A DNA stretch of 64,000 bases, from contig NZ_JH921518.1 in assembly GCF_000299035.1 (NCBI RefSeq), forward strand, positions 532,439-596,438, read 5' to 3'. This DNA comes from Bacillus bingmayongensis (GTDB lineage: Bacteria > Bacillota > Bacilli > Bacillales > Bacillaceae_G). Both the position numbers and the translations under genes were made by a program. The notes beneath the pieces were generated by a model. The model saw only the letters and a list, made by a program, of their open reading frames with translations. It did no database searches and was not told the DNA's origin. Positions 2,474 through 58,955 of the stretch are shown in pieces; positions within the stretch are counted from its first letter, which is position 1; each line of letters begins with the position of its first letter.

Positions 2474-3535
<1,062 letters not shown>

Positions 3536-17425: not shown

Positions 17426-17460
17426 TTGACACTCTAATTGATAAGCATTATCATTATAAT
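17426..17460 (+). promoter_or_regulatory. fer promoter with overlapping Fur box
   Basis: TTGACA (17426-17431), 17 bp and TATCAT (17449-17454) form a good SigA promoter. TGATAAGCATTATCA (17439-17453) matches the 7-1-7 Fur box TGATAATNATTATCA at 14 of 15 positions and covers the spacer and most of the -10. Iron-bound Fur would therefore block this promoter. A second possible -10 (TATAAT) farther down could give Fur-independent transcription. Confidence 0.75.
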
Positions 17461-17497: not shown

Positions 17498-17803
<306 letters not shown>

Positions 17804-18663: not shown

Positions 18664-18804
18664 CCTCCATCTTCTCCCATCCAGACTGTACTGTCGGCTT
18701 TGGAATCTCACCAAATCCTGCCTTAGCGGCTCGCGGGCTTAGAACGAAAAGTAACTGTTCATCACCGCCGGTCGGGATTTTCACCCTGCCCCGAAGATAG
18801 ACCG
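18664..18804 (-). promoter_or_regulatory. FMN riboswitch (RFN element)
   Basis: On the minus strand the RFN landmarks appear in order: TTCGGGGCAGGGTGAAAATC, CCCGACCGGCGGTGATG, AGCCCGCGAGC, GGCAGGATTTGGTGAGATTC, and CCGACAGTACAGTCTGGATG with GGGAGAAGATGG. It senses FMN and turns off ribU when flavin is ample, through the attenuator at 18575-18608. Confidence 0.97.
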
Positions 18805-40965: not shown

Positions 40966-41160
40966 ATGAACACATTAACAATTGAATTACCAAAAGAAAC
41001 GGTAGAAAAGCTTGGATTGTTAAAACAAGCCTATCAAAAGAAAACAGGTGCTACCATTTCAGAAAGTACACTCGTTCAATCTCTTATCTCAAGAGAGTTT
41101 ATTCAAGAAATAACTCCATTTGATTTACAACAATATGTAACTGAAAAAGAACAGCTCTAG
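40966..41160 (+). CDS. Small ribbon-helix-helix-like protein
   Basis: A 64-residue protein. An N-terminal beta strand (MNTLTIELPKETVEKL) is followed by two helices, the pattern of a ribbon-helix-helix DNA-binding dimer such as antitoxins of the CopG/Arc type. There is no toxin gene beside it. AAGGGGGAG stands 6 nt before the ATG. Single gene, closed by its own terminator that includes the stop codon. Function is inferred from the fold pattern only. Confidence 0.65.
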   Translation: MNTLTIELPKETVEKLGLLKQAYQKKTGATISESTLVQSLISREFIQEITPFDLQQYVTEKEQL

Positions 41161-41178
41161 TAGCTGTTCTTTTTCAAT
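41141..41178 (+). terminator. Terminator of the ribbon-helix-helix gene
   Basis: AAAAAGAACAGCT, CTAGT, AGCTGTTCTTTTT overlaps the stop codon. Confidence 0.88.
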
Positions 41179-41295
41179 TTCTTCTCTTTCTGCATTCATA
41201 ATCCATTATATATTACTCTCACTTCTTATCTAGATTCTTATTTTCATTTACATCTGCAGAATTAAATACTTTTTTATTTTATTTCTGAAAAACCA

Positions 41296-41324
41296 TTGAC
41301 AATGATAATGATAACCATTATCAT
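41296..41324 (+). promoter_or_regulatory. Fur-controlled promoter of a short non-coding transcript
   Basis: TTGACA (41296-41301), 17 bp and TATCAT (41319-41324) form a SigA promoter with the same -35, spacing and -10 as the fer promoter. TGATAACCATTATCA (41309-41323) matches the 7-1-7 Fur box at 14 of 15 positions, and TGATAATGATAACCA just upstream overlaps as a second, weaker unit. Transcription should begin near 41331. No gene with a ribosome site follows; the transcript runs into a terminator. Confidence 0.8.
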
Positions 41325-41330
41325 TTATTA

Positions 41331-41440
41331 TGAAGCCAACAATTGATGAATCAACCAAACGCTCAGTAACATTGTTACCCCTCTTTTTCATATAGAAAAA
41401 CACTGTACATTCCCCCTGTTTGTACAGTGTTTTTCTTTTT
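41331..41440 (+). ncRNA. Candidate Fur-regulated small RNA (FsrA-like design)
   Basis: A transcript of about 110 nt is predicted between the Fur promoter and a strong terminator. Its 5' part can fold AACAAT with ATTGTT, and GTAAC-ATT-GTTAC (41366-41378). A single-stranded CCCCTCTTTTT stretch follows. The terminator stem AACACTGTACA/TGTACAGTGTT (to 41434) encloses an 11-nt loop, TTCCCCCTGTT, and ends in CTTTTT. C-rich unpaired stretches are the pairing elements of FsrA, the iron-sparing sRNA of B. subtilis, which is also released by loss of Fur. Whether this is the FsrA of this group or a second one I cannot tell. Confidence 0.65.
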
Positions 41441-41491
41441 ATCCCGCTATTCGTGAACAGTAATCCTCCACTGATTAAAGTTTCAATTTAT
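41438..41491 (-). repeat. Minimal bcr1-like relic, 54 bp (both ends only)
   Basis: Read on the minus strand it begins ATAAATTGAAACTTTAATCA, passes GTGGAGGATTACTG and ends CGAATAGCGGGATAAA. Both ends of the 158-bp copy at 21263-21420 are present and about 100 bp of the middle is gone. It abuts the U tract of the sRNA terminator and ends 3 bp before the DUF72 stop codon. Confidence 0.65.
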
Positions 41492-41493
41492 AT

Positions 41494-42339
41494 TTATTCA
41501 AATAAATTGAGCTGTTCCGGCTTTGGTTCTCCATATGTAATATTCATCATTTCCATGAGTTGCTTTGCATTATCCGCAGCATCTCCGCCTGAATTATTGT
41601 TAAATAATACATATATGTTCTTTGTCTTCTTCTGTAATTTCTCTAATCGTTCCACCCATTCTTCAAGCTCTTTTTTATTGTAGCGATATAAGCAGCGAAC
41701 TGCTCGCCAATTTTCTCCTTTATCAAGCCATCCATGAATATTGCGACCATGAAAGCGTATCAGTGCCATTTCAGAATGTGTTGCTTCTAATACAAGTGGA
41801 ACAGAACCAATTCCAGCTTGTGGTTCATCACAAATCGTATGAATCCATTTTTCCTGTTCTAAAAATTGTAATGTTTTATCATGCATATTGGGATTAAACC
41901 ACGTTTGATTTCGGAATTCTATGGCACACGGCAATTCTTCCATTTTTTCTTTTGTATAACGAAGTAAATCTACATTTTTCTTCTGACAATCAAACCAAGG
42001 TGGGTATTGGAATAATATCGTCTTTAATTTATGTGCTTCTTGAAGCGGAACAATCGATTGTTTAAATGTTTCAAACATCTCATCAATATTTGAAAATGGA
42101 ATCTCTCCTTGCATATGTCCCGTCATCCCTTGATACGCTTTAACAACAAACGAAAAATCTTTTGGTGTTTCCGTGGCCCATTTCATATAATTTCGAACTG
42201 GTTGCATGGCATAAAACGAACTATCGACTTCAACAATAGGAAAATATTCACTATATGTTCGCAATTTATTTCTATTTTCATAGGAATCTGTATATAAAGA
42301 ATCGTGATCTCCCCAACCTGTTAAACCAATTGAAATCAA
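41494..42339 (-). CDS. DUF72 family protein
   Basis: A 281-residue TIM-barrel-like protein of the DUF72 (YecE/YunF) family: YFPIVEVDSSFYAMQP near residue 35, FSFVVKAYQGMTGH near 63, LKTILFQYPPWF near 108, AIEFRNQTWF near 140, LIRFHGRN near 195 and YVLFNNNSGGDAADNA near 250. The reaction is unknown. The start is TTG with AAGGAGGA about 6 nt upstream. Single gene, divergent from the PAS kinase. Confidence 0.88.
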   Translation of the reverse strand: MISIGLTGWGDHDSLYTDSYENRNKLRTYSEYFPIVEVDSSFYAMQPVRNYMKWATETPKDFSFVVKAYQGMTGHMQGEIPFSNIDEMFETFKQSIVPLQEAHKLKTILFQYPPWFDCQKKNVDLLRYTKEKMEELPCAIEFRNQTWFNPNMHDKTLQFLEQEKWIHTICDEPQAGIGSVPLVLEATHSEMALIRFHGRNIHGWLDKGENWRAVRCLYRYNKKELEEWVERLEKLQKKTKNIYVLFNNNSGGDAADNAKQLMEMMNITYGEPKPEQLNLFE

Positions 42340-47238: not shown

Positions 47239-47261
47239 ACTTTATCGTGGGGGTAACAATA

Positions 47262-47882
47262 ATGGTCTTTAAATCTAAAAAAGATAAATTTTCTGAAATG
47301 TTAATGAATGTTTCTGAAAATTTAAAAGAAGGCGCGCAGTTTTTCGTGGAGTATAAAATTAAAAATGCTAGCGATTTAAAAGAATTTTCTATGCGCATGA
47401 AAGAATATGAGTCAAAAGGTGACTCGTTTATTCACGAAATCATTATGGAGCTAAACAAAGCGTTTATTACTCCTATTGAACGTGAAGACATCCTACAGCT
47501 TGCAATGAGTATGGATGATGTATTAGACGGATTAGATCACAGTGCTGGTCTATTCGAAATGTATTCTATTACAGAAGCTGATGAATACATGATTAAATTC
47601 GTAGAAGCAATTAATCAATGTGCGATTGAAATTGCAAACTCTGTTGAACTAATGTCTAACAAAAAATTAGTCGACATTCGTACAAATGCGATTAAGATTA
47701 AGGATTACGAGTCACAATGTGATGATATTCGTCGTCATGCGATTAAGCACTTATTCTCTCGTGAAAAAGATCCGATTAAAATTATTCAATTTAAAGAGAT
47801 TTACGAAGAGCTTGAAGAAGTAGCTGATAGCTGTCAAAGCGTTGCAAACGTATTAGAAACAATTATTATGAAGAACGCGTAA
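47262..47882 (+). CDS. ykaA: DUF47/PhoU-like protein YkaA (Pit accessory)
   Basis: A 206-residue all-helical PhoU-like protein (VFKSKKDKFSEMLMNVSENL at the start, GDSFIHEIIMELNKAFITPIEREDI near residue 50). Such proteins are found next to low-affinity phosphate transporters and are thought to tune Pit activity. The ATG at 47262 follows GTGGGGGT by 6 nt; a start five codons upstream has no site. The pit gene begins 12 bp after its stop. Confidence 0.9.
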   Translation: MVFKSKKDKFSEMLMNVSENLKEGAQFFVEYKIKNASDLKEFSMRMKEYESKGDSFIHEIIMELNKAFITPIEREDILQLAMSMDDVLDGLDHSAGLFEMYSITEADEYMIKFVEAINQCAIEIANSVELMSNKKLVDIRTNAIKIKDYESQCDDIRRHAIKHLFSREKDPIKIIQFKEIYEELEEVADSCQSVANVLETIIMKNA

Positions 47883-58634: not shown

Positions 58635-58683
58635 CTTCATAAAAAAACATGTGAAAATACTGTCAGAATACTTAAACAAAATT

Positions 58684-58955
58684 CATTAACGAGAACGAGT
58701 ACGTTATAGGGCTGTTCCCCAGAGAGTTGGCATCTTGCTGAAAGTCAATGTTCAGTGCGTAACCGAAAATCATCTCCGAGAAGTAGAACCGAACGATGTA
58801 GTAAGTTCTTACCGGCTGTCCCCCGTTACAAGGAACACGTATCATGTTGTACATTGCAAAGCCGCATACATATAGATGTATTTCTACGTGTATGAACTAG
58901 GGTGGTATCGCGGGTAAATATAACTCGTCCCTTTTTAAGGGGCGAGTTTTTTGTG
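58684..58955 (+). promoter_or_regulatory. T-box leader (isoleucine specifier) of brnQ
   Basis: Stem I has AGTA (58698-58701) facing GAAA-ATC-A (58765-58772), so the specifier codon is ATC, isoleucine; GTTA/TAAC closes it above and GAGA/TCTC below. GAGAGTTGGCATCTTGCTG lies in the upper stem. The T-box AGGGTGGTATCGCGGG is at 58899-58914, with the TGGT that pairs with the uncharged tRNA end. The terminator AACTCGTCCC/AGGGGCGAGTT with TTTTTT ends at 58954. Uncharged tRNA-Ile should allow brnQ transcription. Confidence 0.92.

What the first reader, a model, noticed from the sequence alone, without database searches (positions are those of the whole stretch)
41296..41440. Candidate iron-stress small RNA driven by a Fur-box promoter
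A promoter (TTGACA, 17 bp, TATCAT) with a 14/15 Fur box across its spacer and -10 leads, within 110 nt, to a strong intrinsic terminator. No ribosome site or convincing ORF lies between. The predicted RNA has two C-rich unpaired stretches, CCCCTCTTTTT and a CCCCC loop in the terminator hairpin. In B. subtilis the Fur-regulated sRNA FsrA uses C-rich stretches to pair with G-rich ribosome sites of iron-using proteins. The sequence shows the promoter, box, stretches and terminator; the sRNA role and any link to FsrA are inference.
Basis: partly seen in the sequence, partly recalled or inferred. Interest (0 to 1): 0.75.

Follow-up and report, generated by a model that had tools for sequence, protein, structure and literature searches.

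The report
Iron-starvation small RNA with aconitase-matching loop
A short stretch of DNA in a Bacillus cereus-like bacterium probably makes a small RNA when iron runs out, and in close relatives the loop of that RNA is an exact or near-exact match to the ribosome-landing site of the aconitase gene, an iron-using enzyme, which suggests it shuts that enzyme down to save iron.

Summary
Window 41296-41440 has a near-consensus promoter with a Fur box over its -10, then a ~110-nt non-coding stretch ending in a 16-bp terminator hairpin. It is conserved as a unit: the same promoter and C-rich hairpin loop lie beside the same DUF72 gene in Ectobacillus panaciterrae, Bacillus sp. 165 and three unnamed relatives.

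It is not FsrA by the formal test. Rfam FsrA does not match even at E 10, neighbours differ, and beyond the promoter similarity is not significant. The promoter is nearly the same as FsrA's.

New evidence for function: the loop U(U/C)CCCCCUGUU is complementary to the citB (aconitase) Shine-Dalgarno site AACAGGGGGGA. That site is in 5 of 5 genomes with this RNA and in 0 of 15 citB leaders from genomes where it was not found. 0-1 of 676 background sites bind the loop as well; whole-RNA energies are less telling (11-122 of 676).

Most likely this is a lineage-specific Fur-repressed iron-sparing RNA that works like FsrA. Transcription, Fur binding and pairing are untested; the window's own citB is not held.

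The parts
41296..41301 (+). -35 hexamer TTGACA
41309..41323 (+). Fur box TGATAACCATTATCA (1 mismatch), overlapping spacer and -10
   Evidence: same register in all six aligned sequences
41319..41324 (+). -10 hexamer TATCAT
41331..41440 (+). predicted sRNA, about 110 nt (start inferred from the -10)
   Evidence: fold z -5.46; homologues in L002, L001, L097, L101, L102
41378..41384 (+). single-stranded C-rich stretch CCCCTCT; the letters ACCCCTCT also occur in L002 and in FsrA
   Evidence: likeness to FsrA is not above chance for the RNA body as a whole; absent in L101 and L102
41394..41436 (+). terminator hairpin, 16-bp stem, 11-nt loop, followed by a U-rich tail
   Evidence: 3 pairs with changes on both sides among 4 sequences
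41410..41420 (+). hairpin loop UUCCCCCUGUU, proposed seed for the citB Shine-Dalgarno site
   Evidence: measured in relatives, not in the window's own genome
41494..42339 (-). convergent neighbour, DUF72 protein (PF01904), conserved neighbour of the sRNA
40966..41160 (+). upstream neighbour, DUF3924 protein (PF13062); a terminator-like hairpin lies at 41142-41176

Best explanation
A Fur-repressed, trans-acting base-pairing sRNA of the Bacillus cereus-group / Ectobacillus lineage that works like FsrA. With iron, Fur sits on the box over the -10 and silences it. Without iron, a ~110-nt RNA is made. Its terminator-hairpin loop U(U/C)CCCCCUGUU pairs with the aconitase (citB) Shine-Dalgarno region AACAGGGGGGA and blocks translation; the upstream CCCCTCT stretch and the loop may add further G-rich targets such as sdhC. 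Shown here: the promoter, box, terminator, their conservation, and the complementarity in five relatives. Inferred: transcription, Fur binding, repression, the iron-sparing role, and the same citB site in the window's own genome.
For: Conservation: matches over the whole query, E 1.5e-28 (G002, Ectobacillus panaciterrae) and 2.1e-11 (G001, Bacillus sp. 165), in 2 of 13 genomes (10 further genomes matched only short pieces). In that family 14 of 19 genomes matched, and on reading 5 of 19 carry this type. DUF72 is the neighbour in all five. Stem: 93.8% of cells paired (4 of 500 shuffles as high), 3 pairs changed on both sides (6 of 500), though further pair types are not unusual (125 of 500). 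Targets: citB perfect runs of 16, 9, 12, 11 and 11 nt in G001, G002, G014, G015, G016; background start regions with runs as long: 0, 32, 0, 2 and 1 of 676. Loop alone (13 nt): 0, 0, 0, 1 and 1 of 676 bind as strongly. Same-genome samples by loop energy: none of 311 as strong in G001; second of 338 in G016, citB itself included. AACAGGGGGGA at citB in 5 of 5 carriers and 0 of 15 other citB leaders; 1 of 676 background regions holds AACAGGGGGRA. sdhC in G016: 12-nt run, 1 of 676.
Against: No expression data. The window's own genome and citB are not held. The five carriers are one clade, so 5 of 5 is not five independent events. By whole-RNA duplex energy citB is less special: 11, 20, 122, 18 and 61 of 676 background regions are as strong in G001, G002, G014, G015, G016. 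In G002 the Watson-Crick run is only 9 nt (11 with one G-U pair). By run length 4 of 338 G016 regions, citB included, reach 11. leuC and the CCG-domain genes showed no consistent match; sdhC stands out only in G016 (loop: 117, 92, 41, 63 and 8 of 676 as strong in G001, G002, G014, G015, G016) and modestly in G002 with the CCCCTCT stretch (13 of 676). G002's second aconitase gene (L161) lacks the site. G-rich ribosome sites bind C-rich RNAs generically.
Confidence: 0.7

Rival explanations
1. It is a highly diverged true FsrA orthologue: one ancestral Fur-sRNA gene kept its promoter while the RNA body and location drifted.
For: Near-identical promoter and Fur-box register; FsrA-like RNAs of the Ectobacillus family (L098, L100, L111) are similar to FsrA (z 3.1-6.6) and slightly to the window RNA (z 1.0-2.5); RF02273 was over cut-off in neither G001 nor G002 and its 7 hits in 299 genomes include no carrier.
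Against: RF02273 gives no match at E 10; body similarity of window-type RNAs to FsrA z -0.4 to 3.3; different neighbours.
Confidence: 0.35
2. The Fur promoter is real, but the RNA has no trans target; the hairpin is mainly a two-way terminator for it and the convergent DUF72 gene.
For: The hairpin matches the terminator model on both strands (window 43.6 bits on the minus strand) and lies 57 bp past the DUF72 stop.
Against: The loop sequence is among the most conserved parts, beyond what a terminator needs, and it matches citB.
Confidence: 0.13
3. It encodes a leaderless small protein (21 codons from 41330).
For: An ATG sits at the expected start in the window and L002; GTG in L101 and L102.
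Against: No start codon there in L001 or L097, and the frames share no common peptide across the six sequences.
Confidence: 0.03

Closest known systems
FsrA of Bacillus subtilis (Rfam RF02273)
   Same: Fur box over the -10 in the same register, C-rich single-stranded stretches, terminator with a C-rich loop, similar size; citB leader complementarity in FsrA-bearing genomes. FsrA is reported to repress citB, sdhC and others (passages of PMC8464778, PMC12871923, PMC8216469).
   Different: Not recognised by the Rfam model; other genomic neighbours (gene names ykuI and Mn-catalase recalled); its citB match lies in GATCAAGATC, not the terminator loop.
IsrR of Staphylococcus (passages of PMC9410917, PMC11257911)
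   Same: Fur-controlled, C-rich regions pairing with ribosome sites of iron-enzyme mRNAs, C-rich stretches in hairpin loops.
   Different: Different genus and structure per those passages; not compared by sequence here.
LhrC, SurA, RsaE/RoxS (Rfam)
   Same: Firmicute sRNAs with weak hits in the permissive scan (SurA E 0.0017, LhrC 0.87, RsaE 2).
   Different: All far below their gathering scores: 20.3 of 100, 20.5 of 110 and 16.9 of 79 bits.

Membership tests
FsrA (RF02273) | Match to the Rfam covariance model | tested here: not met
   No FsrA row among 12 matches at E <= 10 over 41150-41500
FsrA (RF02273) | Fur box over the promoter, FsrA register | tested here: met
   Fits the 32-bp pattern with 0 mismatches; the pattern was written from these same promoters, so the fit is by construction, but read backwards it gives 0 in 299 genomes
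FsrA (RF02273) | Sequence likeness of the RNA body | tested here: not met
   Local alignment z 1.1-2.0 for the window against 100 shuffles
FsrA (RF02273) | Same genomic neighbours | tested here: not met
FsrA (RF02273) | Help from Fbp proteins on some targets | not tested
   Fbp genes not searched; mentioned in passages of PMC8464778
Fur-controlled iron-sparing sRNAs (functional class) | Complementarity to ribosome sites of iron-enzyme mRNAs | tested here: met
   citB in 5 of 5 relatives; not leuC or CCG genes; sdhC in part; window's own genome not testable
Fur-controlled iron-sparing sRNAs (functional class) | Induced by iron limitation via Fur | not testable with these tools
   Needs RNA measurement

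The most novel reading that the evidence does not exclude
In Bacillales the Fur promoter of the iron-sparing sRNA is kept almost letter for letter while the RNA behind it is repeatedly rebuilt, each lineage evolving its own seed against its own aconitase leader; in the cereus/Ectobacillus lineage the seed has moved into the terminator loop and co-diversified with the citB Shine-Dalgarno site.
Probability: 0.33. Interest if true: 0.72.

Novelty: new variant of a known kind. Interest (0 to 1): 0.58.

Why it matters
Iron-sparing sRNAs are described in B. subtilis and Staphylococcus. The listings of my nine paper searches (open-licence papers only, some lists cut) showed none for the cereus group. 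This gives a concrete candidate with a predicted target site. It also gives several sequence types behind one promoter, in which sRNA-target co-diversification could be measured.

Tried and rejected
FsrA membership via Rfam: negative; RF02273 over cut-off in 0 of 13 relatives and 7 of 299 order genomes. A terminator-only model R1 hit 74 of 397 genomes at E <= 0.001 but is unspecific: only G001 and G002 score over 66 bits, the next 44. Of its 20 fetched loci (L248-L267), Fur boxes with 0 or 1 mismatch lie within 300 nt only in the three from known carriers (G001, G002, G014). G016 scores 32.1 bits and is a carrier by reading. So the distribution rests, not on R1. Plasmid, phage and viral-contig searches found no homologue (the one plasmid hit, a B. 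velezensis record, covers query 39-82, the promoter).

Window's own genes: 2 of 56 start regions have an 11-nt run (IPP isomerase 2474-3523 and a TIGR00153 protein 47247-47882), but 12 of 676 background do too, so no enrichment.

Rows dropped or mended: the G002 sdhC row used a wrong ORF; corrected TIR, run 7. Of 20 CCG loci, 14 were entered: 4 had no closed ORF, L177 and L182 gave a wrong ORF, 8 were used. The G010 citB locus was not fetched, hence 15 outgroup leaders. Start sites were chosen by my script (best ribosome-site score). The z-scores used 100 shuffles although its printed header says 200.

Full report
What is there. Window 41296-41440 carries a near-perfect promoter (TTGACA, 17 bp, TATCAT), a Fur box with one mismatch over the -10, and about 70 nt further on a 16-bp hairpin with an 11-nt loop and a U-rich tail. 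Fur boxes this good are rare: 2 in the window, 0.09 expected, 2 of 100 shuffles with as many. The RNA is far more stable than shuffles, z -5.46, mostly through the terminator. The window is cereus-group-like: its DeoD differs at two positions from PDB 2ac7 in the alignment shown (the species of 2ac7 and 1xe3 are recalled). No genome is held for it, and no near-identical copy turned up.

It is conserved as a unit. A search with the neighbouring DUF72 protein found 334 relatives, of which 80 loci were kept. In the two closest, Bacillus sp. 165 (L001) and Ectobacillus panaciterrae (L002), the same promoter, C-rich loop and terminator lie at the same place beside DUF72. DNA searches gave matches over the whole query in 2 of 13 genomes. 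In the Ectobacillus family 14 of 19 genomes matched, most by the promoter only; on reading, 5 of 19 carry this type: G001, G002, G014, G015, G016. All five have DUF72 next door. The G014 and G016 versions are shorter and lack the CCCCTCT stretch but keep the promoter and the CCCCCCUGUU loop. In the four alignable hairpins the loop side is nearly invariant while three stem pairs change on both sides; four sequences is a small sample.

Relation to FsrA. The promoter is nearly the same, and both RNAs contain ACCCCTCT and a CCCCC loop. But the Rfam model does not match, the neighbours differ, and outside the promoter the similarity of window-type RNAs to FsrA is not significant (z -0.4 to 3.3, window itself 1.1-2.0). 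FsrA-like RNAs in other genomes of the Ectobacillus family (L098, L100, L111) are similar to FsrA (z 3.1-6.6) and bridge the two only weakly (1.0-2.5 to the window). A 32-bp promoter pattern, written from these promoters, has 57 places in 55 of 299 genomes of the order, with 0 for the pattern read backwards. Of the 30 of 57 places fetched, by eye 19 lead into C-rich, mostly terminator-ended stretches of several unlike types (7 FsrA, 3 window type, 9 other), and 11 lead into coding genes or other sequence.

Target test. I looked at four groups in relatives: citB and leuC, sdhC and CCG-domain genes. Only citB stood out in every carrier. The citB leaders of all five contain AACAGGGGGGA at the ribosome site, the complement of the hairpin loop. 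The perfect run is 16 nt in G001, 12 in G014, 11 in G015 and G016, and 9 in G002 (11 with one G-U pair). Background start regions from the 80 loci and the window reach those lengths in 0, 0, 2, 1 and 32 of 676. Using the loop alone, 0, 0, 0, 1 and 1 of 676 bind as well (G001, G002, G014, G015, G016). Whole-RNA duplex energies are less telling: 11, 20, 122, 18 and 61 of 676 in the same order. Against samples from the same genomes, no region of 311 beats citB in G001, and citB is second of 338 in G016, where the first is an uncharacterised membrane-protein gene. Genome-wide the 11-mer AACAGGGGGRA occurs 5 to 13 times per carrier, the sRNA included, no clear excess over the reversed control (3 to 13). 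I read 30 of its 38 places. In G001, where all five were read, citB is the only gene with it at a start site, so no other gene can have it in all five. Fifteen citB leaders from genomes where this RNA was not found all lack it.

Specificity. A matrix of 11 sRNAs by 20 citB leaders is roughly block-shaped. Window-type RNAs match their clade's citB at 9-16 nt and others at 6-9. FsrA matches citB of the two FsrA-bearing genomes at 10-11 through GATCAAGATC and others at 5-8. The L107/L109 type matches its own group's citB at 9-10 and others at 5-9, a weak contrast. The L100 type shows no preference (7 for its own, up to 9 elsewhere). Clades are not independent samples, so this is about two clear contrasts, one weak and one absent.

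How it likely works. With iron replete, Fur covers the -10; on iron loss the RNA is made, and the loop, held open on a strong stem, pairs with the citB ribosome site and blocks translation. sdhC is a possible second target (12 nt in G016; 13 of 676 for the CCCCTCT stretch in G002). The last step for the window itself is an extrapolation, since its citB is not held.

Literature. I read passages only, of PMC12871923, PMC9938188, PMC4059632, PMC11257911, PMC9410917, PMC8464778, PMC8216469, PMC3987803, PMC7843513 and PMC10989752. They describe FsrA in B. subtilis, IsrR in Staphylococcus, plasmid sRNAs of B. anthracis, and an unrelated dual-function RNA of B. thuringiensis. PMC12871923 states that FsrA homologues occur in Bacilli, Staphylococci and Listeria; the passages seen give no cereus-group sequence. 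The original FsrA paper was not held. The listings of nine searches (several lists cut) showed no Fur-controlled sRNA in the cereus group. Subscription papers are not covered, so it may be published elsewhere.

Noticed in passing
window 17426-17454: Second one-mismatch Fur box (17439-17453) over a TTGACA/TATCAT promoter in the same register as the sRNA promoter, about 100 bp upstream of a ferredoxin-like ORF starting at 17556 (identity judged by eye): an iron-sulfur protein apparently under Fur.
   Followed up: no
L119-L122, L142-L145, L104-L107, L109-L110: Several unlike types of Fur-promoter, C-rich, terminator-ended RNA candidates in other Bacillales. G017, G025 and G029 each gave two promoter hits; in G025 (L098, L110) and G029 (L107, L111) both look sRNA-like.
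   Followed up: partly
window 41394-41436, minus strand: The hairpin also scores as a terminator on the minus strand, so the DUF72 transcript may end in a stretch antisense to the sRNA and could act as a sponge.
   Followed up: no
L198 (G014) and L211 (G016), near 1500: An uncharacterised membrane-protein gene has AACAGGGGGGA at its ribosome site in two carriers: a possible further target.
   Followed up: no
window 18665-18802 (-) and 58677-58935 (+): FMN riboswitch and T-box leader.
   Followed up: no
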